From Muricea muricata (Eukaryota; Cnidaria; Anthozoa; Malacalcyonacea; Plexauridae), in the NCBI GenBank assembly GCA_963855995.1, contig OY979730.1, forward strand, positions 6,645,341-6,709,340: 64,000 nt of DNA, given 5' to 3'. A model generated the notes under the pieces. That model worked only from the letters and a program-made list of their open reading frames with translations. It was not told the origin of the DNA and made no database searches. Position numbers and translations under genes: made by a program. This document shows, in pieces, positions 1,324 to 64,000 of the stretch; the stretch's first letter is position 1; the number at the start of each line of letters is the position of its first letter.

Positions 1324-4249
1324 TAATATATAACAATCTAATGAACAATCTAGTATAATGTAACATGAGTCTTTGGGATGACGTTTTTGACCATATTTTG
1401 TAACCAAGACCAAGAGTGTTTCACCCCGAAACCCCTTCTCCCACAAAAGCTTGCGTGTGTGTATTTCTTATGTTATCGCGCAGCATTGCAAGCCTTGACC
1501 ACAGAACAGCTTTAATCATTAACATTACGCTCAACTAGTTCTCTTTTAGCACAGAAAATATCATTTTAAGCTCTAAAACGTTGCCGTGATTGATTTTAAA
1601 CGGCAACCTTTAGTTTGTGATTTGACCATGTTTTTACGCTCAAATCGCTTCTAGAGCGCTTAAAACGCGATTTTGATGATTCTAAGATCGTTTCTTTTAA
1701 GTTTATAAGCTAGTTAAAGGTTTCTCATTTCAACATGTTATTTCACTCTTCTCCATTGTTTGAGCGCCGAAAACTTGATTCCCGACTTGCTAAGTTCTGC
1801 AATTTCAATTTAGAAGGTCTCTTTTAGGTCGGTGATTGCATTATATCATTGCGCTCAACTCGTTCACTTTCATTTTAAGCTCTAAAACGTCGCCGTGATT
1901 GATTTTAGACGGCAATCTTTAGTTTGTAATTTGAGCACGTTTTTGCGCTCAAATCGCTTCTATAGCGCTAAAAACGCGATTTTGGTGATTCTAAGATCGT
2001 TTCTTTTCAGTTTACAAGCTAGTTATAGGTTTCTCAATTCAACATGTTATTTCGCTCATCTCTGCGGTTTGAGCGCCAAAAACTTTATTCCCGACATGCT
2101 AAGTTCTGCAATTTCCATTTAGAAGGTCTCCTTTAGGTCCGTGATTTCATTATATCATTGCGCTCAACTCGTTTACTTTAGCACAGAAAATATCATTTTA
2201 AGCTCTAAAACGTCGCCGTGATTCATTTTAGACGGCAATCTTTAGTTTGTGATTTGAGCATGTTTTTAGCTCAAATCGCTTCTAGAGTGCTAAAAACGCG
2301 ATTTTGATGATTCTAAGATCGTTTCTTTTCAGTTTACAAGCTAGTTCTAGGTTTCATAATTCAACATGTTATTTCCCTCATCTCTGCGGTTTGAGCGCCG
2401 AAAACTTGATCCCCGACTTGCTAAGTTCTGCAATTTCCATTTAGAAGGTCTCTTTTAGGTCCGTGATTGCATTATATTATTGCGCTCAACTCGTTCACTT
2501 TAGCAAAGAAAATATCACTTTAAGCTCTAAAACGTCGCCGTGATTGATTTTAGACGGCCATCTTTAGTTTGTGATTTGAGCATGTTTTTACGCTCAAATC
2601 GCTTCTAGAGCGCTAAAAACGCGATTTTAATGATTCTAAGATCGTTTCTTTTCAGTCTACAAGCTTGTTATAAGTTTCTCAATTCAACATGTTATTTCGC
2701 TCATCTTTGCAGTTTTAGCGCAGAAAACTTGATTCCCGATTTGCTAAGTTCTTTTAAGTCTACAAGCTTTTTATAAGTTTCTCAATTCAACATGTTATTT
2801 CACTCATCTCCATGGTTTTAGCACCGAAAACTTGATTCCCGACTTGCTAAGTTGTGCAGTTTCCATTTCGAAGGTCTCCTTTAAGTCCGTGATTGCAGTA
2901 GATCATAGCGCTCAATTCGTTAACTTTAGCACTGAAAATATCATTTTAAGCTCTAAAACGTCACCGTGAACGATTTAAGACGGGAATCTTTAATTGGTGA
3001 TTTGAGCATGTTTTTACGTTAAAATCACTTCTAGAGCGCTAAAAACGCGATTTTGCTGATTCTAAGATCGTTTCTTTTCAGTTTACAAGCTAGTTATAGG
3101 TTTCTCATTTCAAAATGTTATTTCACTCATCTCCATGGTTTGAGCGCTGAAAACTTTATTCCCGACTTGCTAAGTTCTGCAATTTCCATTTAGAAGGTCT
3201 CATTTAGTTGCGTGATTGCATTATATCATTACGCTCAACTCGTTCTCTTTTAGCACAGAAAATATCATTTTAAGCTCTAAAACGTTGCCGTGATTGATTT
3301 TAAACGGCAACCTTTAGTTTGTGATTTGACCATGTTTTTACGCTCAAATCGCTTCTAGAGCGCTAAAAACGCGATTTTGATGATTCTAAGATTGTTTCTT
3401 TTAAGTTTATAAGCTAGTTAAAGGTTTCTCATTTCAACATGTTATTTCACTCGTCTCCATTGTTTGAGCGCCGAAAACTTGATTCCCGACTTGCAAAGTT
3501 CTGCAATTTCAATTTAGAAGGTCTCTTTTAGGTCGGTGATTGCATTATATCATTGCGCTCAACTCGTTCACTTTCATTTTAAGCTCTAAAACGTCGCCGT
3601 GATTGATTTTAGACAGCAATCTTTAGTTTGTGATTTGAGCACGTTTTTGCGCTCAAATCGCTTCTAGAGCGCTAAAAACGCGATTTTGATGATTCTAAGA
3701 TCGTTTCTTTTCAGTTTACAAGCCATTTATCGGTTTTTCATTTCAACATGTTATTTCACTCATCTCCATGGTTTTAGCACCGAAAACTTGATTCCCGATT
3801 TGCTAAGTTCTGCGATTTTGATGATTCTTAGATCGTTTCTTTTCAGTTTACAAGCCAGTTATCGGTTTTTCATTTCAACATGTTATTTCACTCATCTCCA
3901 TGGTTTTAGCACCAAAAACTTGATTCCCGACTTCCTAAGTTCTGCAATTTCCATTTAGAAGGTCTCTTTTAAGTCCGTGATTGCAGTACATCATAGCGCT
4001 CAATTCGTTAACTTTAACACTGAAAATATCATTTTAAGCTCTAAAACGTCGCCGTGAACGATTTAAGACGCGAATCTTTAGTTGGTGATTTGAGCATGTT
4101 TTTACGCTCAAATCGCTTCTAGAGCGCTAAAACCGCGATTTTGATGATTCTAAGATCGCTTCTTTTCAGTCTACAAGCTTGTTATAAGTTTCTCAATTCA
4201 ACATGTTATTTCGCTCATCTCCATGGTTTAAGCGCCGAAAACTTGATTC

Positions 4250-4494
4250 ATAACTTGCTAAGAAACGATTTAGAAATGACGGCTTTTATTCTTAGTTGTT
4301 TATTGCTTACGCGTAACTTGCGCACGCTATTTAAATTTAAAATTCTTGTACACGTAATTGTATTAACGTATTCTTGTAAGCTTTTCTGCTGAAGATGAAT
4401 CAAATCGATTCGAAATATACAGTTTAAATTAAATTGTGTACTTATTACTATGCACACGTTATTCGGGATAACTCTTGTCTTATAACCTGCTAAG
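4250..4494. mobile_element. 219 bp insertion flanked by 13 bp direct repeats (copy 1)
   Basis: A 219 bp non-satellite segment (4263-4481) interrupts a monomer between ATAACTTGCTAAG at 4250-4262 and its near copy ATAACCTGCTAAG at 4482-4494. The equivalent monomer at 51540-51556 is uninterrupted, which defines the empty site. There are no terminal inverted repeats, no poly-A or simple tail and no promoter boxes that I can see. A 13 bp target duplication fits a short retroelement or a 5'-truncated fragment, but the family is unknown. An 84-codon minus-strand frame across it is partly satellite and has no recognisable domain. Confidence 0.65.
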
Positions 4495-4690
4495 TTCTGC
4501 AATTTTCATTTTAAAGATCTCTTCAAAGTCCGTGATTGCAGTATATCATTACACTCATTTCGTTCACTTTAGCACTGAAAATATCATTTTAAGCTCTAAA
4601 ACGTCGCCGTGATAGATTTTAGACGGCAATTTTTAGTTTGTGATTTGAGCATGTTTTTACGCTCAAATTTCTTCTAGAGCGCTAAAACGC

Positions 4691-7600
4691 GATTTTGATG
4701 GTTCTAAAATCGTTTCTTTTCAGTCTACAAGCTTGTTATAAGTTTCTCAATTCAACATATTATTTCGCTCATCTCTTAAGTTTGAGCGCCGAAAACTTGA
4801 TTCCCGATTTGCTAAGTGCTTCGATTTTGATGATTCTAACATCGTTTCTTTTCAGTTTACAAGCTAGTTATCGGTTTCTCATTTCAACATGTTATTTCAC
4901 TCATCTCCATGGTTTTAGCACCGAAAACTTGATTCCCGACTTCCTAAGTTCTGCAATTTCCATTTAGAAGGTCTCTTTTAAGTCCGTGATTGCAGTACAT
5001 CATAGCGCTCAATTCGTTACCTTTAGCACTGAAAATATAATTTTAAGCTCTAAAACGTCGCCGTGAACGATTTAAAACGCGAATCTTTAGTTGGTGATTT
5101 GAGCATGTTTTTACGCTCAAATTCTTCTAGGGCGCTAAAAACGTGATTTTGCTGATTCTAAGATCGTGTCTTTGCAGTTTACAAGCTATTTATAGGTTTC
5201 TCATTTCAACATGTTATTTCACTCATCTCCATGGTTTAAGCGCCGAAAACTTGATTCATAACTTGCTAGGTTCTGCAATTTTCATTTAAAAGATCTCTTC
5301 AAAGTCCGTGATTGCAGTATATCATTACACTCATTTCGTTCACTTTAGCACCGAAAATATCTTTTTAAGCTCTAAAACGTCGCCGTGATAGATTTTAGAC
5401 GGCAATCTTTAGTTTGTGATTTGAGCATGTTTTTACGCTCGAATTTCTTCTAGAGCGCAAAAACGCAATTTTGATGATTCTAAGATTGTTTCTTTTCAGT
5501 CTACATGCTTGTTATAAGTTTCTCAATTCAACATGTTATTTCGCTCATCTCTGCAGTTTGAGCGCCGAAAACTTGATTCCCGATTTGCTAAGTTCTGCGA
5601 TTTTGATGATTCTAAGATCGCTTCTTTTCAGTTTACAAGCTAGTTATCGGTTTCTCATTTCAACATGTTATTTCACTCATCTCCATGGTTTTAGCACCGA
5701 AAACTTGATTCCCGACTTCCTAAGTTCTGCAATTTCCATTTAGAAGGTCTCTTTTAAGTCCGTGATTGCAGTACATCATAGCGCTCAATTCGTTACCTTT
5801 AGCACTGAAAATATAATTTTAAGCTCTAAAACGTCGCCGTGAACGATTTAAGACGCGAATCTTTAGTTGGTGATTTGAGCATGTTTTTACGCTCAAATTC
5901 TTCTAGGGCGCTAAAAACGTGATTTTGCTGATTCTAAGATCGTGTCTTTGCAGTTTACAAGCTATTTATAGGTTTCTCATTTCAACATGTTATTTCACTC
6001 ATCTCCATGGTTTAAGCGCCGAAAACTTGATTCATAACTTGCTAGGTTCTGCAATTTTCATTTAAAAGATCTCTTCAAAGTCCGTGATTGCAGTAAATCA
6101 TTACACTCATTTCGTTCACTTTAGCACCGAAAATATCTTTTTAAGCTCTAAAACGTCGCCGTGATAGATTTTAGACGGCAATCTTTAGTTTGTGATTTGA
6201 GCATGTTTTTACGATCGAATTTCTTCTAGAGCGCAAAAACGCAATTTTGATTATTCTAAGATTGTTTCTTTTCAGTCTACGTGCTTGTTATAAGTTTCTC
6301 AATTCAACATGTTATTTCGCTCATCTCTGCAGTTTGAGCGCCGAAAACTTGATTCCCGATTTGCTAAGTTCTGCGATTTTGATGATTCTTAGATCGTTTC
6401 TTTTCAGTTTACAAGCTAGTTATCGGTTTCTCCTTTCAACATGTTATTTCACTCATCTCCATGGTTTTAGCACCGAAAAGTTGATTCCCGACTTCCTAAG
6501 TTCTGCAATTTCCATTTACAAGGTCTCTTTTAAGTCCGTGATTGCAGTACATCATAGCGCTCAATTCGTTAACTTTAGCACTGAAAATATCATTTTAAGC
6601 TCTAAAACGTCGCCGTGAACGATTTAAAACGCGAATCTTTAGTTGGTGATTTGAGCATGTTTTTACGCTCAAATTCTTCTAGGGCGCTAAAAACGTGATT
6701 TTGCTGATTCTAAGATCGTGTCTTTGCAGTTTACAAGCTATTTATAGGTTTCTCATTTCAACATGTTATTTCACTCATCTCCATGGTTTAAGCGCCGAAA
6801 ACTTGATTCATAACTTGCTAGGTTCTGCAATTTTCATTTAAAAGATCTCTTCAAAGTCCGTGATTGCAGTATATCATTACACTCATTTCGTTCACTTTAG
6901 CACCGAAAATATCTTTTTAAGCTCTAAAACGTCGCCGTGATAGATTTTAGACGGCAATCTTTAGTTTGTGATTTGAGCATGTTTTTACGCTCGAATTTCT
7001 TCTAGAGCGCAAAAACGCAATTTTGATGAATTTAAGATTGTTTCTTTTCAGTCTACATGCTTGTTATAAGTTTCTCAATTCAACATGTTATTTCGCTCAT
7101 CTCTGCAGTTTGAGCGCCGAAAACTTGATTCCCGATTTGCTAAGTTCTGCGATTTTGATGATTCTAAGATCGCTTCTTTTCAGTTTACAAGCTAGTTATC
7201 GGTTTCTCATTTCAACATGTTATTTCACTCATCTCCATGGTTTTAGCACCGAAAAGTTGATTCCCGACTTCCTAAGTTCTGCAATTTCCATTTACAAGGT
7301 CTCTTTTAAGTCCGTGATTGCAGTACATCATAGCGCTCAATTCGTTAACTTTAGCACTGAAAATATCATTTTAAGCTCTAAAACGTCGCCGTGAACGATT
7401 TAAGACGCGAATCTTTAGTTGGTGATTTGAGCATGTTTTTACGCTTAAATCACTTCTAGAGCGCTAAAAACGTGATTTTGCTGATTCTAAGATCGTGTCT
7501 TTTCAGTTTACAAGCTATTTTTATAGGTTTCTCATTTCAACATGTTATTTCACTCATCTCCATGGTTTAAGCGCCGAAAACTTGATTCATAACTTGCTAA

Positions 7601-8574
7601 GTTCTGCAATTTTCATTTAAAAGATCTCTTCAAAGTCCGTGATTGCAGTGTATCATTACACTCATTTCGTTCACTTTAGCACCGAAAATATCTTTTTAAG
7701 CTCTAAAACGTCGCCGTGATAGATTTTAGACGGCAATCTTTAGTTTGTGATTTGAGCATGTTTTTACGCTCGAATTTCTTCTAGAGCGCAAAAACGCAAT
7801 TTTGATTATTCTAAGATTGTTTCTTTTCAGTCTACGTGCTTGTTATAAGTTTCTCAATTCAACATGTTATTTCGCTCATCTCTGCAGTTTGAGCGCCGAA
7901 AACTTGATTCCCGATTTGCTAAGTTCTGCGATTTTGATGATTCTTAGATCGTTTCTTTTCAGTTTACAAGCTAGTTATCGGTTTCTCCTTTCAACATGTT
8001 ATTTCACTCATCTCCATGGTTTTAGCACCGAAAAGTTGATTCCCGACTTCCTAAGTTCTGCAATTTCCATTTACAAGGTCTCTTTTAAGTCCGTGATTGC
8101 AGTACATCATAGCGCTCAATTCGTTAACTTTAGCACTGAAAATATCATTTTAACCTCTAAAACGTCGCCGTGAACGATTTAAGACGCGAATCTTTAGTTG
8201 GTGATTTGAGAATGTTTTTACGCTTAAATCACTTCTAGAGCGCTAAAAACGTGATTTTGCTGATTCTAAGATCGTGTCTTTTCAGTTTACAAGCTATTTA
8301 TAGGTTTCTCATTTCAACATGTTATTTCACTCATCTCCATGGTTTAAGCGCCGAAAACTTGACTCATAACTTGCTAAGTTCTGCAATTTTCATTTAAAAG
8401 ATCTCTTCAAAGTCCGTGATTGCAGTATATCATTACACTCATTTCGTTCACTTTAGCACTGAAAATATCATTTTAAGCTCTAAAACGTCTCCGTGATAGA
8501 TTTTAGACGGCAATCTTTAGTTTGTGATTTGAGCATGTTTTTCCGCTCAAATTTCTTCTAGAGCGCTAAAACGC
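4691..8574. repeat. Five 776-779 bp dimers (455+321), in copy 1
   Basis: Unit heads fall at 4691, 5467, 6243, 7019 and 7798, giving spacings of 776, 776, 776 and 779. The 779 unit has three extra bases in TATTTTTATAGG. Each unit is one 455 bp composite followed by one monomer of about 321 bp. Units are distinguishable by variants such as CTACATGC versus CTACGTGC and CATTTAGAAGG versus CATTTACAAGG. Confidence 0.8.
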
Positions 8575-11500
8575 GATTTTGATGATTCTAAGATCGTTTC
8601 TTTTCAGTTTATAAGCTAGTTATAGGTTTCGCGTTTCAACATGTTATTTAACTCATCTCCATGGTTTGAGCGCCGAAAACTTGATTCCCGACTTGCTAGG
8701 TTCTGCAATTTCCATTTAGAAGGTCTCATTTAGGTCCGTGACTGCATTATATCATTGCGCTCAACTGGTTCACTTTAGCACAGAAAATATCATTTTAAGC
8801 TCTAAAACGTCGCCGTGATTGATTTTAAACGGCAACCTTTAGTTTGTGATTTGACCAAGTTTTTACGCTCAAATCGCATCTAGAGCGCTAAAAACGCGAT
8901 TTTGATGATTCTAAGATCGTTTCTTTTCAGTTTAAAAGCTAGTTATAGGTTTCTCATTTCAACATGTTATTTCACTCATCTCCATGGTTTGAGCGCCGAA
9001 AACTTGATTCCCGACTTGCTAAGTTTTGCGATTTAAATTTAGAAGGTCTCTTTTAGGTCCGTGATTTCATTATATCATTGCGCTCAACTCGTTTACTTTC
9101 ATTTTAAGCTGTAAAACGTCGCCGTGATTGATTTTAGACGGCAATCTTTAGTTTGTGATTTGAGCACGTTTTTACGCTCAAATCGTTTCTAGAGCGCTAA
9201 AAACGCGATTTTGATTATTCTAAGATCGTTTCTTTTCAGTTTACAAGCTAGTTATAGGTTTCTCAATTCAACATGTTATTTCGCTCATCTCTGCGGTTTG
9301 AGCGCCGAAAACTTTATTCCCGACTTGCTAAGTTCTGCAATTTCCATTTAGAACGTCTCTTTTAGGTCCGTGATTGCATTATATCATTGTGCTCAACTCG
9401 TTCACTTTAGCACAGAAAATATCATTTTAAGCTCTAAAACGTCGCCGTGATTGATTTTAGACGGCAACCTTTAGTTTTTTATTTGAGCATGTTTTTAGCT
9501 CAAATCGCTTCTAGAGTGCTAAAAACGCGATTTTGCTGATTCTAAGATCGTTTCTTTTCAGTTTACAAGCTAGTTATAGGTTTCTCAATTCAACATGTTA
9601 TTTCGCTCATCTCTGCGGTTTGAGCGCCAAAAACTTTATTCCCGACATGCTAAGTTCTGCAATTTCCATTTAGAAGGTCTCCTTTAGGTCCGTGATTTCA
9701 TTATATCATTGCGCTCAACTCGTTTACTTTAGCACAGAAAATATCATTTTAAGCTCTAAAACGTCGCCGTGATTCATTTTAGACGGCAATCTTTAGTTTG
9801 TGATTTGAGCATGTTTTTAGCTCAAATCGCTTCTAGAGTGCTAAAAACGCGATTTTGATGATTCTAAGATCGTTTCTTTTCAGTTTACAAGCTAGTTCTA
9901 GGTTTCATAATTCAACATGTTATTTCCCTCATCTCTGCGGTTTGAGCGCCGAAAACTTGATCCCCGACTTGCTAAGTTCTGCAATTTCCATTTAGAAGGT
10001 CTCTTTTAGGTCCGTGATTGCATTATATTATTGCGCTCAACTCGTTCACTTTAGCAAAGAAAATATCACTTTAAGCTCTAAAACGTCGCCGTGATTGATT
10101 TTAGACGGCCATCTTTAGTTTGTGATTTGAGCATGTTTTTACGCTCAAATCGCTTCTAGAGCGCTAAAAACGCGATTTTAATGATTCTAAGATCGTTTCT
10201 TTTCAGTCTACAAGCTTGTTATAAGTTTCTCAATTCAACATGTTATTTCGCTCATCTTTGCAGTTTTAGCGCAGAAAACTTGATTCCCGATTTGCTAAGT
10301 TCTTTTAAGTCTACAAGCTTTTTATAAGTTTCTCAATTCAACATGTTATTTCACTCATCTCCATGGTTTTAGCACCGAAAACTTGATTCCCGACTTGCTA
10401 AGTTGTGCAGTTTCCATTTCGAAGGTCTCCTTTAAGTCCGTGATTGCAGTAGATCATAGCGCTCAATTCGTTAACTTTAGCACTGAAAATATCATTTTAA
10501 GCTCTAAAACGTCACCGTGAACGATTTAAGACGGGAATCTTTAATTGGTGATTTGAGCATGTTTTTACGTTAAAATCACTTCTAGAGCGCTAAAAACGCG
10601 ATTTTGCTGATTCTAAGATCGTTTCTTTTCAGTTTACAAGCTAGTTATAGGTTTCTCATTTCAAAATGTTATTTCACTCATCTCCATGGTTTGAGCGCTG
10701 AAAACTTTATTCCCGACTTGCTAAGTTCTGCAATTTCCATTTAGAAGGTCTCATTTAGTTGCGTGATTGCATTATATCATTACGCTCAACTCGTTCTCTT
10801 TTAGCACAGAAAATATCATTTTAAGCTCTAAAACGTTGCCGTGATTGATTTTAAACGGCAACCTTTAGTTTGTGATTTGACCATGTTTTTACGCTCAAAT
10901 CGCTTCTAGAGCGCTAAAAACGCGATTTTGATGATTCTAAGATTGTTTCTTTTAAGTTTATAAGCTAGTTAAAGGTTTCTCATTTCAACATGTTATTTCA
11001 CTCGTCTCCATTGTTTGAGCGCCGAAAACTTGATTCCCGACTTGCAAAGTTCTGCAATTTCAATTTAGAAGGTCTCTTTTAGGTCGGTGATTGCATTATA
11101 TCATTGCGCTCAACTCGTTCACTTTCATTTTAAGCTCTAAAACGTCGCCGTGATTGATTTTAGACAGCAATCTTTAGTTTGTGATTTCAGCACGTTTTTG
11201 CGCTCAAATCGCTTCTAGAGCGCTAAAAACGCGATTTTGATGATTCTAAGATCGTTTCTTTTCAGTTTACAAGCCAGTTATCGGTTTTTCATTTCAACAT
11301 GTTATTTCACTCATCTCCATGGTTTTAGCACCGAAAACTTGATTCCCGATTTGCTAAGTTCTGCGATTTTGATGATTCTTAGATCGTTTCTTTTCAGTTT
11401 ACAAGCCAGTTATCGGTTTTTCATTTCAACATGTTATTTCACTCATCTCCATGGTTTTAGCACCAAAAACTTGATTCCCGACTTCCTAAGTTCTGCAATT

Positions 11501-11800
11501 TCCATTTAGAAGGTCTCTTTTAAGTCCGTGATTGCAGTACATCATAGCGCTCAATTCGTTAACTTTAACACTGAAAATATCATTTTAAGCTCTAAAACGT
11601 CGCCGTGAACGATTTAAGACGCGAATCTTTAGTTGGTGATTTGAGCATGTTTTTACGCTCAAATCGCTTCTAGAGCGCTAAAACCGCGATTTTGATGATT
11701 CTAAGATCGCTTCTTTTCAGTCTACAAGCTTGTTATAAGTTTCTCAATTCAACATGTTATTTCGCTCATCTCCATGGTTTAAGCGCCGAAAACTTGATTC

Positions 11801-12045
11801 ATAACTTGCTAAGAAACGATTTAGAAATGACGGCTTTTATTCTTAGTTGTTTATTGCTTACGCGTAACTTGCGCACGCTATTTAAATTTAAAATTCTTGT
11901 ACACGTAATTGTATTAACGTATTCTTGTACGCTTTTCTGCTGAAGATGAATCAAATCGATTCGAAATATACAGTTTAAATTAAATTGTGTACTTATTACT
12001 ATGCACACGTTATTCGGGATAACTCTTGTCTTATAACCTGCTAAG
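11801..12045. mobile_element. 219 bp insertion, copy 2
   Basis: Same insertion as at 4250-4494, carried along by the super-repeat duplication (offset 7551). It differs at a few bases, for example C for A in the CTTGTAC stretch near 11930, which shortens nothing and supports no coding role. The right flank has the same C change in the target repeat as copy 1. Confidence 0.65.
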
Positions 12046-12241
12046 TTCTGCAATTTTCATTTTAAAGATCTCTTCAAAGTCCGTGATTGCAGTATATCAT
12101 TACACTCATTTCGTTCACTTTAGCACTGAAAATATCATTTTAAGCTCTAAAACGTCGCCGTGATAGATTTTAGACGGCAATTTTTAGTTTGTGATTTGAG
12201 CATGTTTTTACGCTCAAATTTCTTCTAGAGCGCTAAAACGC

Positions 12242-14942
12242 GATTTTGATGGTTCTAAAATCGTTTCTTTTCAGTCTACAAGCTTGTTATAAGTTTCTCA
12301 ATTCAACATATTATTTCGCTCATCTCTTAAGTTTGAGCGCCGAAAACTTGATTCCCGATTTGCTAAGTTCTTCGATTTTGATGATTCTAACATCGTTTCT
12401 TTTCAGTTTACAAGCTAGTTATCGGTTTCTCATTTCAACATGTTATTTCACTCATCTCCATGGTTTTAGCACCGAAAACTTGATTCCCGACTTCCTAAGT
12501 TCTGCAATTTCCATTTAGAAGGTCTCTTTTAAGTCCGTGATTGCAGTACATCATAGCGCTCAATTCGTTACCTTTAGCACTGAAAATATAATTTTAAGCT
12601 CTAAAACGTCGCCGTGAACGATTTAAGACGCGAATCTTTAGTTGGTGATTTGAGCATGTTTTTACGCTCAAATTCTTCTAGGGCGCTAAAAACGTGATTT
12701 TGCTGATTCTAAGATCGTGTCTTTGCAGTTTACAAGCTATTTATAGGTTTCTCATTTCAACATGTTATTTCACTCATCTCCATGGTTTAAGCGCCGAAAA
12801 CTTGATTCATAACTTGCTAGGTTCTGCAATTTTCATTTAAAAGATCTCTTCAAAGTCCGTGATTGCAGTATATCATTACACTCATTTCGTTCACTTTAGC
12901 ACCGAAAATATCTTTTTAAGCTCAAAAACGTCGCCGTGATAGATTTTAGACGGCAATCTTTAGTTTGTGATTTGAGCATGTTTTTACGCTCGAATTTCTT
13001 CTAGAGCGCAAAAACGCAATTTTGATGATTCTAAGATTGTTTCTTTTCAGTCTACATGCTTGTTATAAGTTTCTCAATTCAACATGTTATTTCGCTCATC
13101 TCTGCAGTTTGAGCGCCGAAAACTTGATTCCCGATTTGCTAAGTTCTGCGATTTTGATGATTCTAAGATCGCTTCTTTTCAGTTTACAAGCTAGTTATCG
13201 GTTTCTCATTTCAACATGTTATTTCACTCATCTCCATGGTTTTAGCACCGAAAACTTGATTCCCGACTTCCTAAGTTCTGCAATTTCCATTTAGAAGGTC
13301 TCTTTTAAGTCCGTGATTGCAGTACATCATAGCGCTCAATTCGTTACCTTTAGCACTGAAAATATAATTTTAAGCTCTAAAACGTCGCCGTGAACGATTT
13401 AAGACGCGAATCTTTAGTTGGTGATTTGAGCATGTTTTTACGCTCAAATTCTTCTAGGGCTCTAAAAACGTGATTTTGCTGATTCTAAGATCGTGTCTTT
13501 GCAGTTTACAAGCTATTTATAGGTTTCTCATTTCAACATGTTATTTCACTCATCTCCATGGTTTAAGCGCCGAAAACTTGATTCATAACTTGCTAGGTTC
13601 TGCAATTTTCATTTAAAAGATCTCTTCAAAGTCCGTGATTGCAGTATATCATTACACTCATTTCGTTCACTTTAGCACCGAAAATATCTTTTTAAGCTCT
13701 AAAACGTCGCCGTGATAGATTTTAGACGGCAATCTTTAGTTTGTGATTTGAGCATGTTTTTACGCTCGAATTTCTTCTAGAGCGCAAAAACGCAATTTTG
13801 ATTATTCTAAGATTGTTTCTTTTCAGTCTACGTGCTTGTTATAAGTTTCTCAATTCAACATGTTATTTCGCTCATCTCTGCAGTTTGAGCGCCGAAAACT
13901 TGATTCCCGATTTGCTAAGTTCTGCGATTTTGATGATTCTTAGATCGTTTCTTTTCAGTTTACAAGCTAGTTATCGGTTTCTCCTTTCAACATGTTATTT
14001 CACTCATCTCCATGGTTTTTGCACCGAAAAGTTGATTCCCGACTTCCTAAGTTCTGCAATTTCCATTTACAAGGTCTCTTTTAAGTCCGTGATTGCAGTA
14101 CATCATAGCGCTCAATTCGTTAACTTTAGCACTGAAAATATCATTTTAAGCTCTAAAACGTCGCCGTGAACGATTTAAGACGCGAATCTTTAGTTGGTGA
14201 TTTGAGCATGTTTTTACGCTCAAATTCTTCTAGGGCGCTAAAAACGTGATTTTGCTGATTCTAAGATCGTGTCTTTGCAGTTTACAAGCTATTTATAGGT
14301 TTCTCATTTCAACATGTTATTTCACTCATCTCCATGGTTTAAGCGCCGAAAACTTGATTCATAACTTGCTAGGTTCTGCAATTTTCATTTAAAAGATCTC
14401 TTCAAAGTCCGTGATTGCAGTATATCATTACACTCATTTCGTTCACTTTAGCACCGAAAAGATCTTTTTAAGCTCTAAAACGTCGCCGTGATAGATTTTA
14501 GACGGCAATCTTTAGTTTGTGATTTGAGCATGTTTTTACGCTCGAATTTCTTCTAGAGCGCAAAAACGCAATTTTGATGATTCTAAGATTGTTTCTTTTC
14601 AGTCTACATGCTTGTTATAAGTTTCTCAATTCAACATGTTATTTCGCTCATCTCTGCAGTTTGAGCGCCGAAAACTTGATTCCCGATTTGCTAAGTTCTG
14701 CGATTTTGATGATTCTAAGATCGCTTCTTTTCAGTTTACAAGCTAGTTATCGGTTTCTCATTTCAACATGTTATTTCACTCATCTCCATGGTTTTAGCAC
14801 CGAAAAGTTGATTCCCGACTTCCTAAGTTCTGCAATTTCCATTTACAAGGTCTCTTTTAAGTCCGTGATTGCAGTACATCATAGCGCTCAATTCGTTAAC
14901 TTTAGCACTGAAAATATCATTTTAAGCTCTAAAACGTCGCCG
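12242..14942. repeat. 776 bp dimers in copy 2 (three full and one cut)
   Basis: Heads are at 12242, 13018, 13794 and 14570, with exact 776 bp spacing. The last unit is interrupted at about 14943 by the switch into copy 3. Confidence 0.75.
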
Positions 14943-51539: not shown

Positions 51540-51556
51540 ATTCATAACTTGCTAAG
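51540..51556. other. Empty site of the 219 bp insertion
   Basis: The monomer equivalent to 4240-4500 reads straight through ATAACTTGCTAAG into TTCTGC, with one copy of the 13-mer and no inserted DNA. This is the pre-insertion state. Confidence 0.75.
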
Positions 51557-52707: not shown

Positions 52708-55700
52708 ATAGGTTTCTAATATCAACATGTTATTTCGCTCATCTCTGCAGTTTGAGCGCCAAAAACTTTATTCCCGACTTGCTAAAATCCACAATTTCCA
52801 TTTAGAAGGTGTCTTTTAGGTCCGTGATTGCAGTATATCATTGCGCTCAACTCGTTCACTTTAGCACAGAAAATATCATTTTAAGCTCTAAAACGTCGCC
52901 GTGATCGATTTTACACGACAATCTTTAGTTTGTGATTTGAGCACGTTTTTACGCTCAAATCGCCTCTAGAGCGCTAAAAACGCGATTTTGATGATTCTAA
53001 GATCGTTTCTTTTCAGTTTATAAGCTAGTTATAGGTTTCTCATTTCAACATATTATTTCACTCATCTCCATGGTTTGAGCGCCGAAAACTTGATTCCCGA
53101 CTTGCTAAGTTTTGCAATTTAAATTTAGAAGGTCTTTTTTAGGTCCGTGATTTCATTATATCATTGCGCTCAACTCGTTCACTTTCATTTTAAGCTCTAA
53201 AACGTCGCCGTGATTGATTTTAGACGGCAATCTTTAGTTTGTGATTTGAGCATGTTTTTAATCTCAAATCGCTTCTAGAGTGCTAAAAACGCGATTTTGA
53301 TGATTCTAAGATCGTTTCTTTACAGTTTACAAGCTAGTTATAGGTTTCTCAATTCAACATGTTATTTCCCTCATCTCTGCGGTTTGAGCGCCGAAAACTT
53401 TATTCCTGACTTGCTAAGTTCTGCAATTTCCATTTAGAACGTCTCTTTTAGGTCCGTGATTGCATTATATCATTGCGCTCAACTCGTTCACTTTAGCACA
53501 GAAAATGTCATTTTAAGCTCTAAAACGTCGCCGTGATTGATTTTAGACGGCAATCTTTAGTTTTTTATTTGTGCATGTTTTTACGCTCAAATGTCTTCTA
53601 GAGCGCTAAAACGCGATTTTGATTATTCTAAGATCGCTTCTTTTCAGTTTATAAGCTAGTTATAGGTTTCTAATTTCAACATGTTATTTCACTCATCTCC
53701 ATAGTTTGAGCGCCGAAAACTTGATTCCCGACTTGCTAGGTTCTGCAATTTCCATTTAGAAGGTCTCATTTAGGTCCGTGATTGCATTATATCATTGCGC
53801 TCAACTCGTTCACTTTAGCACAGAAAATATAATTTAAGCTCTAAAACGTCGCCGTGATTGATTTTAGACGGCAATCTTTAGTTTTTTATTTGAGCATGTT
53901 TTTACGCTTAAATCGCTTCTAGAACGCTAAAAACGCGATTTTGATGATTCTAAGATCGTGTCTTTTCAGTTTACAAGCTAGTTACAGGCTTCTCAATTAA
54001 ACATGTTATTTCGCTCATCTCTGCAGTTTGAGCGCCGAAAACTTGATTCCCGATTTGCCAAGTTCTACGATTTTGATGATTTTAAGATCGTTTCTTTTCA
54101 GTTTACAAGCTAATTATCGGTTTCTCATTTCAACAAGTTATTTCACTCATCTCCATGGTTTTAGCACCGAAAACTTGATTCCCGACTTCCTAAGTTCTGC
54201 AATTTCCATTTCGAAGGTCTCTTTTAAGTCCGTGTTTGCAGTAGATCATAGCGCTCAATTCCTTAACTTTAGCACTGAAAATATCATTTTAAGCTCTAAA
54301 ACGTCGCCGTGAACGATTTAAGACGCGAATCTTTAATTGGTGATTTGAGCATGTTTTTACGTTAAAATCTCTTCTAGAGCGGTAAAAATGCGATTTTGCT
54401 GATTCTAAGATCGTTTCTTTTCAGTTTACAAGCTAGTTATAGGTTTCTCATTTCAAAATGTTATTTCACTCATCTCCATCGTTTGAGCGCTGAAAACTTC
54501 ATTCCCGACTTGCTAAGTTCTGCAATTTCCATTTAGAAGGTCTCATTTAGTTGCGTGATTGCATTATATCATTACGCTCAACTCGTTCAGTTTTAGCACA
54601 GAAAATATCATTTTAAGCTCTAAAACGTTGGCCTGATTAATTTTAAACGGCAACCTTTAGTTTGTGATTTGACCATGTTTTTACGCTCAAATTCCTTCTA
54701 GAGCGCTAAAAACGCGATTTTGATGATTGTAAGATCGTTTCTTTTCAGTTTATAAGCTAGTTAAAGGTTTCTCATTTCAACATGTTATTTCACTCATCTC
54801 CATGGTTTGAGCGCCAAAAACTTGATTCCCGACTTGCTAAGTTTTGCAATTTCAATTTAGAAGGTCTCTTTTAGGTCCGTGATTGCATTATATCATTGCG
54901 CTCAACTCGTTCATTTTCATTTTAAGCTCTAAAACGTCGCCGTGATTGATTTTAGACGGCAATCTTTAGTTTGTGATTTGAGCACGTTTTTACGCTCAAA
55001 TCGCTTCTAGAGCGCTAAAAACGCGATTTTGATGATTCTTAGATCGTTTCTTTTCAGTTTACAAGCTAGTTATAGGTTTCTCATATCAACATGTTATTAC
55101 GCTCATCTCTGCAGTTTGAGCGCCAAAAACTTTATTCCCGACTTGCTAAAATCCACAATTTCCATTTAGAAGGTGTCTTTTAGGTCCGTGATTGCATTAT
55201 ATCATTGCGCTCAACTCGTTCACTTTAGCTCAGAAAATATCATTTTAAGCTCTAAAACGTCGCCGTGATTGATTTTAGACGGCAATCTTTAGTTTGTGAT
55301 TTAAGCATGTTTTTACGCTCAAATCGCTTCTAGAGTGCTAAAAACGCGATTTTGATGATTCTAAGATCGTTTCTTTACAGTTTACAAGCTAGTTATAGGT
55401 TTCTCAATTCAACATGTTATTTCCCTCATCTCTGCGGTTTGAGCGCCGAAAACTTTATTCCTGACTTGCTAAGTTCTGCAATTTTCAATTAGAACGTCTC
55501 TTTTAGGTCCGTGATTGCATTATATCATTGCGCTCAACTCGTTCACTTTAGCACAGAAAATATCATTTTAAGCTCTAAAACGTCGCCGTGATTGATTTTA
55601 GACGGCAATCTTTAGTTTTTTATTTGAGCATGTTTTTACGCTCAAATTTCTTCTAGAGCGCTAAAACGCGATTTTGATTATTCTAAGATCGCTTCTTTTC

Positions 55701-56470
55701 TGTTTATAAGTTGTTATAGGTTTTTCATTTCAACATGTTATTTCACTCATCTCCATGGTTTGAGCGCCGAAAACTTGATTCCCGACTTGCTAGGTTCTGC
55801 AATTTCCATTTAGAAGGTCTCTTTTAGGTGCGTGATTGCATTATATCATTGCGCTCAACTCGTTCACTTTAGCACAGAAAATATCATTTTAAGCTCTAAA
55901 ACGTCGCCGTGATTGATTTTAGACGGCAATCTTTAGTTTGTGATTTGAGCACGTTTTTACGCTCAAATCGCTTCTAGAGCGGTAAAAACGCGATTTTGAT
56001 GATTCTTAGATCGTTTCTTTTCAGTTTACAAGCTAGTTATAGGTTTCTCAATTCAACATGTTATTTCCCTCATCTCTGCAGTTTGAGCGCCGAAAACTTG
56101 ATTCCCAATTTGCCAAGTTCTGCGATTTTGATGATTCTAAGATCGTTTCTTTTCAGTTTACAAGCTAGTTATAGGTTTCTCAATTCAACATGTTATTTCC
56201 CTCATCTCTGCGGTTTGAGCGCCGAAAACTTTATTCCCGACTTGCTAAGTTCTGCAATTTCCATTTAGAAGGTCTCTTTTAGGTCCGTGATTGCATTATA
56301 TCATTGCGCTCAACTCGTTCACTTTAGCACAGAAAATATCATTTTAAGCTCTAAAACGTCGCCGTGATTGATTTTAGACGGCAATCTTTAGTTTTTTATT
56401 TGAGCATGTTTTTACGCTCAAATTTCTTCTAGAGCGCTAAAACGCGATTTTGATTATTCTAAGATCGCTT
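52708..56470. repeat. 2055 bp higher-order region, array 3
   Basis: The CTTTACAG variant ends at 53325 and again at 55380, an offset of 2055, and the CTAAAATCCACAATTTCC variant also recurs at that spacing. The same variants and the same period mark 27076-31092, so this higher-order unit predates the divergence of the two macro-copies. Confidence 0.65.
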
Positions 56471-58586
56471 CTTATCAGTTTGTAAGCTAGTTATGGGTAT
56501 CTAATTTGAACATGTTATTTCACTCATCTCCATAGTTTAAGCGCCGAAAACTTGATTCATAACTTGCTAAGTTCTGCAATTTTCATTTAAAAGATCTCTT
56601 CAAAGTCCGTGATTGCAGTATATCATTACACTCATTTCGTTCACTTTAGCACTGAAAATATCATTTTAAGCTCTAAAACGTCTTCGCGATAGATTTTAGA
56701 CGGCAATCTTTAGTTTGTGATTTGAGCATGTTTTTCCGCTCAAATTTCTTCTAGAGCGCTAAAACGCGATTTTGATGATTCTAAGATCGTTTCTTTTCAG
56801 TTTATAAGCTAGTTATAGGTTTCGCGTTTCAACATGTTATTTAACTCATCTCCATGGTTTGAGCGCCGAAAACTTGATTCATGATTTGCTAGGTTCTGCA
56901 ATTTCCATTTAGAAGGTCTCATTTAGGTCCGTGATTGCATTATATCATTGCGCTCAACTCGTTCACTTTAGCACAGAAAATATCATTTTAAGCTCTAAAA
57001 CGTCGCCGTGATTGATTTTAAACGGCAACCTTTAGTTTGTGATTTGACCAAGTTTTTACGCTCAAATCGCCTCTAGAGCGCTAAAAACGCGATTTTGATG
57101 ATTCTAAGATCGTTTCTTTTCAGTTTATAAGCTAGTTATAGGTTTCTCATTTCAACATGTTATTTCACTCATCTCCATGGTTTGAGCGCCGAGAACTTGA
57201 TTCCCGACTTGCTAAGTTTTGCAATTTAAATTTAGAAGGTCTCTTTTAGGTCCGTGATTTCATTATATCATTGCGCTCAACTCGTTCACTTTCATTTTAA
57301 GCTTTAAAACGTCGCCGTGATTGATTTTAGACGGCAATCTTTAGTTTGTGATTTGAGCATGTTTTTACGCTCAAATCGTTTCTAGAGCGCTAAAAACGCG
57401 ATTTTGATTATTCTAAGATCGTTTCTTTTCAGTTTAAAAGCTAGTTATAGGTTTCTCAATTCAACATGTTATTTCGCTCATCTCTGCGGTTTGAGCGCCG
57501 AAAACTTTATTCCCGACTTGCTAAGTTCTGCAATTTCCATTTAGAACGTCTCTTTTAGGTCCGTGATTGCATTATATCATTGCGCTCAACTCGTTCACTT
57601 TCATTTTAAGCTCTAAAACGTCGCCGTGATTGATTTTAGACGGCAATCTTTAGTTTGTGATTTGAGCATGTTTTTACGCTCAAATCGTTTCTAGAGCGCT
57701 AAAAACGCGATTTTGATTATTCTAAGATCGTTTCTTTTCAGTTTACAAGCTAGTTATCGGTTTCTCCTTTCAACATGTTATTTCACTCATCTCCATGGTT
57801 TTAGCACAGAAAAGTTGATTCCCGACTTCCTAAGTTCTGCAATTTCCATTTACAAGGTCTCTTTTAAGTCCGTGATTGCAGTACATCATAGCGCTCAATT
57901 CGTTAACTTTAGCACTGAAAATATCATTTTAAGCTCTAAAACGTCGCCGTGAACGATTTAAGACGCGAATCTTTAGTTGGTGATTTGAGAATGTTTTTAC
58001 GCTTAAATCACTTCTAGAGCGCTAAAAACGTGATTTTGCTGATTCTAAGATCGTGTCTTTTCAGTTTACAAGCTATTTATAGGTTTCTCATTTCAACATG
58101 TTATTTCACTCATCTCCATGGTTTGAGCGCCGAAAATTTGATTCCCGACTTGCTAGGTTCTGCAATTTCCATTTAGAAGGTCTCATTTAGGTCCGTGATT
58201 GCATTATATCATTGCGCTCAACTCGTTCACTTTAGCACAGAAAATATCATTTTAAGCTCTAAAACGTCGCCGTGATTGATTTTAGACGGCAATCTTTAGT
58301 TTTTTATTTGAGCATGTTTTTATGCTTAAATCGCTTCTAGAACGCTAAAAACGCGATTTTGATGATTCTAAGATCGTGTCTTTTCAGTTTACAAGCTAGT
58401 TATAGGTTTCTAAATTCAACATGTTATTTCGCTCATCTCTGCAGTTTGAGCGCCGAAAACTTGATTCCCAATTTGCCAAGTTCTGCGATTTTGATGATTC
58501 TAAGATCGTTTCTTTTCAGTTTACAAGCTAGTTAAAGGTTTCTCAATTCAACATGTTATTTCGCTCATCTCTGCGGCTTGAGCGCG

Positions 58587-61393
58587 GAAAACTTTATTCC
58601 CGACTTGCTAAGTTCTGCAATTTCCATTTAGAAGGTCTCTTTTAGGTGCGTGATTGCATTATATCATTGCGCTCAACTCGTTCACTTTAGCACAGAAAAT
58701 ATCATTTTAAGCTCTAAAACGTCGCCGTGATTGATTTTAGACGGCAATCTTTAGTTTGTGATTTGAGCACGTTTTTACGCTCAAATCGCTTCTAGAGCGC
58801 TAAAAACGCGATTTTGATGATTCTTAGATCGTTTCTTTTCATTTTACAAGCTTTTTATAAGTTTCTCAATTCAACATGTTATTTCACTCATCTCCATGGT
58901 TTTAGCACCGAAAATTTGATTCCCGACTTGCTAAGTTGTGCAGTTTCCATTTCGAAGGTCTCTTTTAAGTCCGTGATTGCAGTAGATCATAGCGCTCAAT
59001 TCGTTAACTTTAGCACTGAAAATATCATTTTAAGCTATAAAACGTCACCGTGAACGATTTAAGACGGGAATCTTTAATTGGTGATTTGAGCATGTTTTTA
59101 CGTTAAAATCACTTCTAGAGCGCTAAAAACGCGATTTTGCTGATTCTAAGGTCGTTTCTTTTCAGTTTACAAGCTAGTTATAGGTTTCTCAATTCAACAT
59201 GTTATTTCACTCATCTCTGCGGTTTGAGCGCCGAAAACTTTATTCCCGACTTGCTAAGTTCTGCAATTTCCATTTAGAAGGTCTCTTTTAGGTGCGTGAT
59301 TGCATTATATCATTGCGCTCAACTCGTTCACTTTAGCACAGAAAATATCATTTTAAGCTCTAAAACGTCGCCGTGATTGATTTTAGACGGCAATCTTTAG
59401 TTTTTTATTTGAGCATGTTTTTATGCTTAAATCGCTTCTAGAACGCTAAAAACGCGATTTTGATGATTCTAAGATCGTGTCTTTTCAGTTTACAAGCTAG
59501 TTATAGATTTCTCAATTCAACATGTTATTTCGCTCATCTCTGCAGTTTGAGCGCCGAAAACTTGATTCCCAATTTGCCAAGTTCTGCGATTTTGATGATT
59601 CTAAGATCGTTTCTTTTCAGTTTACAAGCTAGTTATAGGTTTCTCAATTCAACATGTTAATTCACTCATCTCTGCGGTTTGAGCGCCGAAAACTTTATTC
59701 CCGACTTGCTAAGTTCTGCAATTTCCATTTAGAAGGTCTCTTTTAGGTGCGTGATTGCATTATATCATTGCGCTCAACTCGTTCACTTTAGCACAGAAAA
59801 TATCATTTTAAGCTCTAAAACGTCGCCGTGATTGATTTTAGACGGCAATCTTTAGTTTGTGATTTGAGCACGTTTTTACGCTCAAATCGCTTCTAGAGCG
59901 CTAAAAACGCGATTTTGATGATTCTTAGATCGTTTCTTTTCATTTTACAAGCTTTTTATAAGTTTCTCAATTCAACATGTTATTTCACTCATCTCCATGG
60001 TTTTAGCACCGAAAATTTGATTCCCGACTTGCTAAGTTGTGCAGTTTCCATTTCGAAGGTCTCTTTTAAGTCCGTGATTGCAGTAGATCATAGCGCTCAA
60101 TTCGTTAACTTTAGCACTGAAAATATCATTTTAAGCTATAAAACGTCACCGTGAACGATTTAAGACGGGAATCTTTAATTGGTGATTTGAGCATGTTTTT
60201 ACGTTAAAATCACTTCTAGAGCGCTAAAAACGCGATTTTGCTGATTCTAAGGTCGTTTCTTTTCAGTTTACAAGCTAGTTATAGGTTTCTCAATTCAACA
60301 TGTTATTTCACTCATCTCTGCGGTTTGAGCGCCGAAAACTTTATTCCCGACTTGCTAAGTTCTGCAATTTCCATTTAGAAGGTCTCTTTTAGGTGCGTGA
60401 TTGCATTATATCATTGCGCTCAACTCGTTCACTTTAGCACAGAAAATATCATTTTAAGCTCTAAAACGTCGCCGTGATTGATTTTAGACGGCAATCTTTA
60501 GTTTTTTATTTGAGCATGTTTTTATGCTTAAATCGCTTCTAGAACGCTAAAAACGCGATTTTGATGATTCTAAGATCGTGTCTTTTCAGTTTACAAGCTA
60601 GTTATAGATTTCTCAATTCAACATGTTATTTCGCTCATCTCTGCAGTTTGAGCGCCGAAAACTTGATTCCCAATTTGCCAAGTTCTGCGATTTTGATGAT
60701 TCTAAGATCGTTTCTTTTCAGTTTACAAGCTAGTTATAGGTTTCTCAATTCAACATGTTAATTCACTCATCTCTGCGGTTTGAGCGCCGAAAACTTTATT
60801 CCCGACTTGCTAAGTTCTGCAATTTCCATTTAGAAGGTCTCTTTTAGGTGCGTGATTGCATTATATCATTGCGCTCAACTCGTTCACTTTAGCACAGAAA
60901 ATATAATTTTAAGCTCTAAAACGTCGCCGTGATTGATTTTAGACGGCAATCTTTAGTTTGTGATTTGAGCACGTTTTTACGCTCAAATCGCTTCTAGAGC
61001 GCTAAAAACGCGATTTTGATGATTCTTAGATCGTTTCTTTTCATTTTACAAGCTTTTTATAAGTTTCTCAATTCAACATGTTATTTCACTCATCTCCATG
61101 GTTTTAGCACCGAAAATTTGATTCCCGACTTGCTAAGTTGTGCAGTTTCCATTTCGAAGGTCTCTTTTAAGTCCGTGATTGCAGTAGATCATAGCGCTCA
61201 ATTCGTTAACTTTAGCACTGAAAATATCATTTTAAGCTATAAAACGTCACCGTGAACGATTTAAGACGGGAATCTTTAATTGGTGATTTGAGCATGTTTT
61301 TACGTTAAAATAACTTCTAGAGCGCTAAAAACGCGATTTTGCTGATTCTAAGGTCGTTTCTTTTCAGTTTACAAGCTAGTTATAGGTTTCTCA
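58587..61393. repeat. 1101 bp higher-order repeat, about 2.5 units
   Basis: Units start at about 58587, 59688 and 60789. Each is one 455 bp composite plus two 323 bp monomers. The units are nearly identical. Differences noticed include A for C at 60905 and TAACTT for CACTT near 61311. The third unit is left at about 61393, where TCAATTCAACATG becomes TCATTTCAAAATG. High identity implies very recent amplification or gene-conversion-like homogenisation. Confidence 0.8.
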
Positions 61394-64000
61394 TTTCAAA
61401 ATGTTATTTCACTCATCTCCATGGTTTTAGCGCTGAAAACTTTATTCCCGACTTCCTAAGTTCTGCAATTTCCATTTAGAAGGTCTCATTTAGTTGCGTG
61501 ATTGCATTATATCATTACGCTCAACTCGTTCTCTTTTAGCACAGAAAATATCATTTTAAGCTCTAAAACGTTGCCGTGATTGATTTTAAACGGCAACCTT
61601 TAGTTTGTGATTTGACCATGTTTTTACGCTCAAATCGCTTCTAGAGCGCTAAAAACGCAATTTTGATGATTCTAAGATCATGTCTTTTCAGTTTACAAGC
61701 TAGTTTTAGGTTTCTCATTTCAACATGTTATTTCACTCGTCTCCATTGTTTGAGCGCCGAAAACTTGATTCCCGACTTGCTAAGTTCTGCAATTTCAATT
61801 TAGAAGGTCTCTTTTAGGTCGGTGATTGCATTATATCATTGCGCTCAACTCGTTCACTTTCATTTTAAGCTCTAAAACGTCGCCGTGATTGATTTTAGAC
61901 AGCAATCTTTAGTTTGTGATTTGAGCACGTTTTTGCGCTCAAATCGCTTCTAGAGCGCTAAAAACGCGATTTTGATGATTCTAAGATCGTTTCTTTTCAG
62001 TTTACAAGCTAGTTATAGGTTTCTCAATTCAACATGTTATTTCGCTCATCTCTGCAGTTTCAGCGCCGAAAACTTGATTCCCAATTTGCCAAGTTCTGCG
62101 ATTTTGATGATTCTAAGATCGTTTCTTTTCAGTTTACAAGCTAGTTAAAGGTTTCTCAATTCAACATGTTATTTCGCTCATCTCTGCGGTTTGAGCGCGG
62201 AAAACTTTATTCCCGACTTGCTAAGTTCTGCAAATTCCATTTAGAAGGTCTCTTTTAGGTGCGTGATTGCATTATATCATTGCGCTCAACTCGTTCACTT
62301 TAGCACAGAAAATATCATTTTAAGCTCTAAAACGTCGCCGTGATTGATTTTAGACGGCAATCTTTAGTTTGTGATTTGAGCACGTTTTTACGCTCAAATC
62401 GCTTCTAGAGTGCTAAAAACAAGATTTTGATGATTCTTAGATGGTTTCTTTTCAGTTTACAAGCTAGTTATAGGTTTCTCAATTCAACATGTTATTTCCC
62501 TCATCTCTGCGGTTTGAGCGCCGAAAACTTTATTCCCGACTTGCTAAGTTCTGCAATTTCCATTTAGAACGTCTCTTTTAGGTCCGTGATTGCATTATAT
62601 CATTGCGCTCAACTCGTTCACTTTAGCACAGAAAATATCATTTTAAGCTCTAAAACGTCGCCGTGATTGATTTTAGACGGCAATCTTTAGTTTTTTATTT
62701 GAGCATGTTTTTACGCTCAAATTTCTTCTAGAGCGCTAAAACGCGATTTTGATTATTCTAAGATCGCTTCTTTTCAGTTTATAAGCTAGTTATAGGTTTC
62801 TCATTTCAACATGTTATTTCACTCATCTCCATGGTTTGAGCACCGAAAACTTGATTCCCGACTTGCTAGGTTCTGCAATTTCCATTTAGAAGGTCTCATT
62901 TAGGTCCGTGATTGCATTATATCATTGCGCTCAACTCGTTCACTTTAGCACAGAAAATATCATTTTAAGCTCTAAAACGTCGCCGTGATTGATTTTAGAC
63001 GGCAATCTTTAGTTTTTTATTTGAGCATGTTTTTATGCTTAAATCGCTTCTAGAACGCTAAAAACGCGATTTTGATGATTCTAAGATCGTGTCTTTTCAG
63101 TTTACAAGCTAGTTATAGATTTCTCAATTTAACATGTTATTTCGCTCATCTCTGCAGTTTGAGCGCCGAAAACTTGATTCCCAATTTGCCAAGTTCTGCG
63201 ATTTTGATGATTCTAAGATCGTTTCTTTTCAGTTTACAAGTTAGTTATAGGTTTCTCATTTCAAAATGTTATTTCACTCATCTCCATGGTTTTAGCGCTG
63301 AAAATTTTATTCCCGACTTCCTAAGTTCTGCAATTTCCATTTAGAAGGTCTCATTTAGTTGCGTGATTGCATTATATCATTACGCTCAACTCGTTCTCTT
63401 TTAGCACAGAAAATATCATTTTAAGCTCTAAAACGTTGCCGTGATTGATTTTAAACGGCAACCTTTAGTTTGTGATTTGACCATGTTTTTACGCTCAAAT
63501 CGCTTCTAGAGCGCTAAAAACGCGATTTTGATGATTCTAAGATTGTTTTTTTTAAGTTTATAAGCTAGTTAAAGGTTTCTCATTTCAACATGTTATTTCA
63601 CTCGTCTCCATTGTTTGAGCGCCGAAAACTTGATTCCCGACTTGCTAAGTTCTGCAATTTCAATTTAGAAGGTCTCTTTTAGGTCGGTGATTGCATTATA
63701 TCATTGCGCTCAACTCGTTCACTTTCATTTTAAGCTCTAAAACGTCGCCGTGATTGATTTTAGACAGCAATCTTTAGTTTGTGATTTGAGCACGTTTTTG
63801 CGCTCAAATCGCTTCTAGAGCGCTAAAAACATGATTTTGATGATTCTAAGATCGTTTCTTTTCAGTTTACAAGCCAAATATCGGTTTTTCATTTCAACAT
63901 GTTATTTCACTCATCTCCATGGTTTTAGCACCGAAAACTTGATTCCCGATTTGCTAAATTCTGCGATTTTGATGATTCTAAGATCGTTTCTTTTCAGTTT

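What the first reader, a model, noticed from the sequence alone, without database searches (positions are those of the whole stretch)
1523..64000. Satellite with at least five nested repeat scales
Periods of about 108, 323, 455, 776, 1101, 2055, 5600-7550 and 47265 bp are all readable in one window. The larger periods are sums of 323-type and 455-type monomers (455+321=776 and 455+323+323=1101). Such depth of hierarchy is best known from primate alpha satellite. An independent case in what looks like an invertebrate would be useful for studying how higher-order repeats arise.
Basis: partly seen in the sequence, partly recalled or inferred. Interest (0 to 1): 0.7.

Follow-up and report, generated by a model that had tools for sequence, protein, structure and literature searches.

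The report
TE-tagged nested satellite array, probable centromere
This is part of a long tandem-repeat array inside an animal chromosome, in which repeats are built into larger repeats at about five nested scales and copies of jumping genes have been carried along; it resembles human centromere DNA in organisation, but centromere function has not been tested.

Summary
The window (C15:6645341-6709340 of a 453-Mb genome) lies inside a satellite array that fills all 270 kb fetched, inserts apart, and continues beyond. The 323-bp monomer is an old triplication of ~108 bp. Adjacent monomers are 90% identical, like random pairs, yet 498 of 556 plus-arm monomers have a twin of 98% or more. The scales are nested: 38 of 39 776-bp units match another run better than their own (99.4% against 97.1%), and 5.6-7.55-kb blocks come in types that are 99.9-100% alike across 43-49-kb super-units. 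Super-units carry amplified insertions: a dispersed 2.67-kb element (6 copies), a 5'-truncated non-LTR retrotransposon (3) and a ~0.22-kb insert (11). 455 and 2055 are spacings, not homogenised levels. Related arrays lie internally on C3, C4, C5 and C15 and at a contig end on C14; none was listed on C1 or C2. Most likely this is centromeric or pericentromeric DNA grown by repeated unequal exchange plus conversion. The mitochondrial code suggests a non-bilaterian animal. Higher-order repeats are a known kind; this is a deep new example.

The parts
1..1516 (+). right-hand part of a dispersed 2.67-kb element (TE-M), matching 47266-48785
1517..31091 (+). satellite: 323-bp monomers with 132-bp partial units (s), ~309-bp units with a 14-bp deletion (D) and 426-bp units (F)
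4262..4485 (+). ~0.22-kb insert (INT) with a 13-bp flank duplication (1 mismatch); distance to the next INT 7551 bp
11813..12036 (+). INT copy 2 (5601 bp to the next)
17414..17637 (+). INT copy 3 (6480 bp to the next)
23894..24117 (+). INT copy 4
4689..7795 (+). run of four 776-779-bp units (s+L+L)
12240..14567 (+). run of three 776-bp units
17841..20947 (+). run of four 776-779-bp units
24321..25875 (+). run of two 776-779-bp units
31092..31164 (-). (TGATAG)n tail of the retrotransposon, 12.2 copies, 100%
31164..34064 (-). 5'-truncated non-LTR retrotransposon; 3 copies in the fetched array, the other two differing from this one by 1 and 2 bases in 2901; related copies elsewhere in the genome
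31331..34081 (-). open frame of 916 aa in that element (first 17 bases in satellite): endonuclease PF03372, its first 63 profile positions missing, and reverse transcriptase PF00078
34058..46111 (+). satellite, second part of super-unit U4
46112..48785 (+). TE-M, full copy in the array; border of super-units U4 and U5
48786..64000 (+). satellite of super-unit U5 (no retrotransposon or INT found in it); its first 2.7 kb match the start of U4 at 99%, the rest at about 94% or less
57398..61795 (+). 1101-bp units (s+L+L+L), 96.8% at an offset of about 1.09 kb

Best explanation
The window is a piece of a long centromeric or pericentromeric satellite array, probably of a non-bilaterian animal. Shown: a 323-bp monomer made of three ~108-bp sub-repeats; monomers about 90% alike; recurring marker units (132-bp and 103-bp partial duplications, a 14-bp deletion); copies of groups of monomers as 776- or 1101-bp units, of these in 5.6-7.5-kb blocks, and of blocks in 43-49-kb super-units, broadly more alike at the larger scales; and mobile elements copied along inside the super-units. 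Inferred: each larger scale was copied more recently, by unequal exchange between sister chromatids or break-induced replication; markers arose by rare out-of-register joins; shorter conversion patches (about 1-4 kb) spread insertions into otherwise diverged parts and into the inverted arm; and the array serves as the centromere of this chromosome.
For: Plus arm, 556 monomers: neighbours 0.899, all pairs 0.901, best match 0.994; 498 of 556 have a match of 0.98 or more, 362 an identical one. Collinear >0.98 pairs 1347, permuted at most 66 of 300. Nesting: 38 of 39 776-bp units match another run better than their own (means 0.994, 0.971); of 11 INT-started stretches, 10 in U2-U4 fall into four types, 0.999-1.000 within a type across super-units and 0.963-0.985 between types, except one pair of types at 0.996-0.997. 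Inserts sit at one monomer position and orientation: TE-M 6, INT 11, retrotransposon 3. U2-U4 align at 98.3-99.5% over stretches of 15-22 kb. Patches: INT in U1 has 0.99-1.0 identity to U4 from -600 to +600 and mostly 0.83-0.95 outside; TE-M of the inverted arm lies in a 4.4-kb stretch of 98%. Sub-repeat: cyclic identity 0.461 at 108, mean 0.272, sd 0.033. Place: C15 5.92-5.95 (listed copies) and 6.48-6.80 of 12.57 Mb; C3 29.26-29.47 of 60.66; C4 11.04-11.91 of 19.16, all 21 listed copies in that one zone; C5 from 10.92 of 18.58 Mb.
Against: No kinetochore, methylation or chromatin data. C14's exact copies lie mostly at the contig end. C1 and C2, the two largest contigs, showed none in the listings of two degenerate motifs, so the family may not mark every centromere. 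No CENP-B box: best matches have 3 of 9 fixed positions wrong. Nesting is not perfect: U2 holds two INT stretches of the same type at 1.000, and U4 two types at 0.996. U1 is only 88-91% like U2-U4 in the four longest pieces listed per pair. Number and order of super-units rest on one assembly without reads. The inversion arms are about 95% alike beside the junction; its origin is unexplained.
Confidence: 0.75

Rival explanations
1. A non-centromeric heterochromatic satellite block that has grown by the same unequal exchange, with the centromere elsewhere or not sequence-defined.
For: No functional data; no copy listed on C1 and C2 for two degenerate motifs; C14 copies mostly at a contig end; both orientations on C15 and C4.
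Against: One internal zone each, between 47% and 62% of the contig length, on C3, C4, C5 and C15 as far as listed; 32,552 motif copies genome-wide; repeat units that differ between chromosomes. Lowered from 0.3.
Confidence: 0.25
2. The largest scale is an assembly artefact: haplotypes or misjoined reads placed in tandem.
For: Exact direct repeats of 8 kb exist, e.g. at the 47265 offset; no reads to check.
Against: Super-units differ in length, block order and content (U2, U3, U4 carry INT blocks in different combinations; the retrotransposon was found in U2-U4 only) and by 0.5-1.8% in their longest shared stretches; no exact direct repeat of 10 kb in 270 kb.
Confidence: 0.08
3. Transposons drove the amplification: recombination between inserted copies made the super-units, rather than the elements riding along.
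For: TE-M copies are 99.3-100% alike and could serve as exchange sites; I delimited super-units by TE-M, so this is not independent.
Against: 776- and 1101-bp units need no insert; long high-identity stretches run through the inserts and many start or end away from TE-M; C3 shows a ~20.6-kb and C4 a 5593-bp recurring spacing of other motif sets, where inserts were not examined.
Confidence: 0.12

Closest known systems
Primate alpha-satellite higher-order repeats, including cascading HORs (human chromosome 15, PMC11050224, abstract seen; orangutan 59-mer, PMC11276891, title and start of abstract seen in a listing)
   Same: Tandem monomers diverged within a unit and near-identical between units; units of units; internal arrays
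   Different: Unrelated 323-bp monomer with ~108-bp sub-repeats instead of 171 bp (recalled); no CENP-B box; unit lengths vary; young mobile-element copies amplified inside the super-unit
Tribolium castaneum TCAST higher-order repeats (PMC7598501, passages seen; the original paper PMC5737470 is not held)
   Same: Invertebrate centromeric satellite with HORs combined with extraneous sequence elements
   Different: Here one continuous internal array shows several nested levels; the passage reports Tribolium's from unplaced scaffolds and singletons only
Arabidopsis centromere arrays with ATHILA insertions (recalled; only the listing seen)
   Same: Satellite array invaded by retrotransposons, with later copying of inserted elements (recalled)
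   Different: Here a non-LTR element and two unclassified inserts, copied inside nested units

Membership tests
Higher-order repeat (general) | Monomers inside a unit clearly diverged, units nearly identical | tested here: met
   neighbours 0.899; best matches 0.994; block types 0.999-1.000
Higher-order repeat (general) | Units repeated head to tail | tested here: met
   776-bp runs of 2-4 units; INT blocks; super-units U2-U4 in a row; regularity at the top level is imperfect
Nested HOR | Lower units match counterparts in other higher units better than neighbours | tested here: met
   38 of 39 776-bp units; INT-block matrix, with two exceptions named in the Against line
Primate alpha satellite | ~171-bp monomer (recalled) | tested here: not met
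   323-bp consensus
Primate alpha satellite | CENP-B box (motif recalled) | tested here: not met
   no match in the consensus with fewer than 3 of 9 positions wrong, both strands
Centromere | CENP-A nucleosomes and kinetochore | not testable with these tools
   no chromatin data
Centromere | One array per chromosome at the constriction | tested here: inconclusive
   internal zone on C3, C4, C5, C15; contig end on C14; none listed on C1 and C2; C6-C13 and C16 not resolved by the capped listings
Non-LTR retrotransposon (31164-34064) | Endonuclease and reverse transcriptase in one frame | tested here: met
   PF03372 and PF00078 over their cut-offs
CR1/L2-type clade | Clade assignment by phylogeny | not tested
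   suggested only by the short-repeat tail and recall

The most novel reading that the evidence does not exclude
Centromeres of a non-bilaterian animal carry chromosome-specific, deeply nested higher-order repeats (five scales here, up to ~49 kb; recurring spacings of ~20.6 kb on C3 and 5.6 kb on C4), so the alpha-satellite style of growth arose independently, and transposon insertions record the order of the rounds.
Probability: 0.55. Interest if true: 0.7.

Novelty: new member of a known kind. Interest (0 to 1): 0.5.

Why it matters
How higher-order repeats grow is argued mostly from primates (recalled). Here three insertions, found in 3, 6 and 11 copies, act as built-in time marks in one continuous assembly, so the order of amplification rounds and the size of conversion patches can be read directly. 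If the array is the centromere, it offers an independent animal case for testing whether nesting follows from recombination alone.

Tried and rejected
Rejected as levels: 455 (no excess identity) and 2055 (weak). 13152 was set aside as the sum 5601+7551. Fixed lags in monomer counts do not beat permutation inside the window alone. Of 824 units, 651 (L and D) entered the identity counts; 173 (144 s, 8 F, 11 I, 6 M, 3 R, 1 other) were left out. Rfam: no match at gathering scores. Phage collection: no match to 1441 bases of the array. The 123-aa frames are repeat translations; the one tested has no Pfam match. TE-M: no clear terminal inverted repeat, no frame over 118 aa; class left open. An empty site for the retrotransposon was sought by its flanks apart: the ten adjacent pairs printed are 87-93% alike, no close one. 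The first satellite search listed C15 only, which looked like chromosome specificity; motif searches corrected this. Listings are capped at 100 places and their order is not documented: one search leaves out a reverse copy at C15:6512834 that one search finds, so 'none listed on C1 and C2' is weaker for (all listed places forward) than for (both strands listed). Species not identified.
Full report
Where it lies. The window is G000:C15:6645341-6709340, in a genome of 453,007,491 bases and 74 contigs. C1-C16 are 11.6-124 Mb; C17-C21, the only later ones sampled apart from C74, are 11-221 kb; C74 is 19.3 kb. The COX1 frame on C74 (532 codons) has no TGA, 15 TGG, 7 AGA/AGG and 18 ATA; AGA/AGG stand where I recall arginine in other COX1 proteins, and ATA where isoleucine fits. 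That suits a sponge- or cnidarian-like mitochondrial code rather than a bilaterian one. It is an indication; the species was not identified. TTAGGG arrays are listed at the start of C1.

Extent. All 270 kb fetched (C15:6480001-6750000) are satellite apart from inserts: minus orientation up to 6514363, plus after it. The s-junction mark is listed to 6798448, and exact motif copies also at 5920304-5953325; the stretch between 5.953 and 6.480 Mb was not examined.

Monomer. 824 units were cut; 651 full monomers (with or without the 14-bp deletion) gave a 323-bp consensus, mean identity to it 0.938. Its thirds align with each other above 300 shuffles each (scores 65, 62, 50.5 against maxima of 50.5, 51, 50; the last only just), and cyclic identity at 108 is 0.461 against a mean of 0.272, sd 0.033. 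CpG is not depleted: 15 against 11.3 expected. Marker units are s (132 bp, 144 in 270 kb), D (14-bp deletion, columns 204-217, 86 units), F (426 bp, 8) and I, M, R, which carry inserts.

Hierarchy. In the plus arm neighbouring monomers are no more alike than any two (0.899 and 0.901), but the best match averages 0.994 with a median of 1.0; 498 of 556 reach 0.98. Of the window's 146 monomers, 106 have such a match inside the window and 139 in the 270 kb. High-identity pairs form collinear runs: 1347 of 2548 pairs in the plus arm (permuted at most 66), 61 of 107 in the minus arm (at most 9), 136 of 282 in the window (at most 16), 300 permutations each. Of 46 776-bp units 39 are in runs of two or more, and 38 of these match a unit of another run better than any of their own; 25 adjacent pairs average 0.972, range 0.893-0.986. 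Eleven INT-started stretches of 3.6 kb: the ten in U2-U4 form four types. Within a type, across super-units, they are 0.999-1.000; between types 0.963-0.985, except two types at 0.996-0.997 that both occur in U4. U2 holds one type twice (1.000), so a sister pair can be as alike as counterparts. U1's copy is 0.914-0.952 to all others. TE-M to TE-M distances are 32,754, 49,277, 42,872 and 47,265 bp. U2, U3 and U4 share stretches of 15-22 kb at 98.3-99.5%; in the four longest pieces listed per pair U1 is 88-91% like them; U5 matches U4 at 99% over its first 5.4 kb, then about 94%. So the top level is solid for three super-units and partial for U1 and U5.

Insertions as clocks. TE-M: six copies, 99.3-100% of the window's, at one monomer position, one in the inverted arm. 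A search with 1141 of its 2674 bases scored 40 places: these six and 34 elsewhere, 11 of the latter at 99%. Retrotransposon: three copies, in U2-U4; the two others differ from the window's by 1 and 2 bases; a search with 1031 bases found related copies elsewhere at up to 99%. It is cut at its 5' end: the endonuclease match starts at profile position 64. A 51-bp duplication with one mismatch flanks it, which could be a target-site duplication or simply neighbouring monomers. INT: eleven copies, one difference in all. The likely order is TE-M and INT before the last super-unit copying, the retrotransposon late. INT in U1 and TE-M in the inverted arm lie in short near-identical patches within diverged satellite, which looks like conversion or short transfers.

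Genome-wide. The 33-mer with up to three mismatches occurs 32,552 times (reversed control 0); the fetched 270 kb hold 793. The 100 places listed are exact: 14 on C14 (13 of them within 26 kb of the contig end) and 86 on C15. A degenerate form occurs 9,179 times; the 100 listed are all on C3 at 29.26-29.47 Mb, where a spacing of 20,623 recurs 10 times among the first 35 positions. That length equals 64 monomers but contains out-of-register steps. A second degenerate motif occurs 15,176 times (control 0); the 100 listed are 1 on C3 (inside the same array), 21 on C4, all between 11.04 and 11.91 Mb and in both orientations, with three successive steps of 5593 bp, and 78 on C5 from 10.917 Mb, mostly one monomer apart. 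The exact s-junction occurs 147 times, 73 in the fetched stretch; the 100 listed are all on C15. The C14 piece is 89% like the consensus (290 of 325 aligned bases) with a 9-bp gap. Hence one family, with variants and larger units that differ between chromosomes. C1 and C2 appear in none of these listings; C6-C13 and C16 are not resolved, because listings are capped.

Function. One internal zone each on C3, C4, C5 and C15 (between 47% and 62% of the contig, as far as listed) and chromosome-specific large units suggest centromere or pericentromere; this is inference. Literature: the listings of nine searches showed no title or abstract start reporting nested higher-order repeats in a sponge or cnidarian; this says nothing about papers outside those listings.

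Noticed in passing
G000:C15:6514363/6514364: The array changes orientation; arms next to the junction are only about 95% alike, and the minus arm further out is mostly plain 322-bp monomers with a weak 15-monomer period.
   Followed up: partly
G000:C3:29262583-29469606: Another array of the family near the middle of the contig with a recurring 20.6-kb spacing.
   Followed up: partly
G000:C4:11043794-11905596 and C5:10917336-10945455: Further internal zones of the family; C4 shows steps of 5593 bp and both orientations, C5 looks like plain monomers.
   Followed up: no
G000:C14:12855331-12880864: Exact motif copies within 26 kb of the contig end: an end-placed array or an assembly that stopped inside it.
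   Followed up: no
G000:C15:6729695 onward: A further insert of about 3.6 kb in the array; one frame of 125 aa, none longer, in the part looked at.
   Followed up: partly
G000:C1:38414782-38416095: A second COX1-like stretch with one stop, perhaps a nuclear copy of mitochondrial DNA.
   Followed up: no
G000 C1-C16: Three very large contigs (124, 72, 61 Mb) beside thirteen of 11.6-19.2 Mb: a strikingly uneven karyotype, perhaps by fusion.
   Followed up: no
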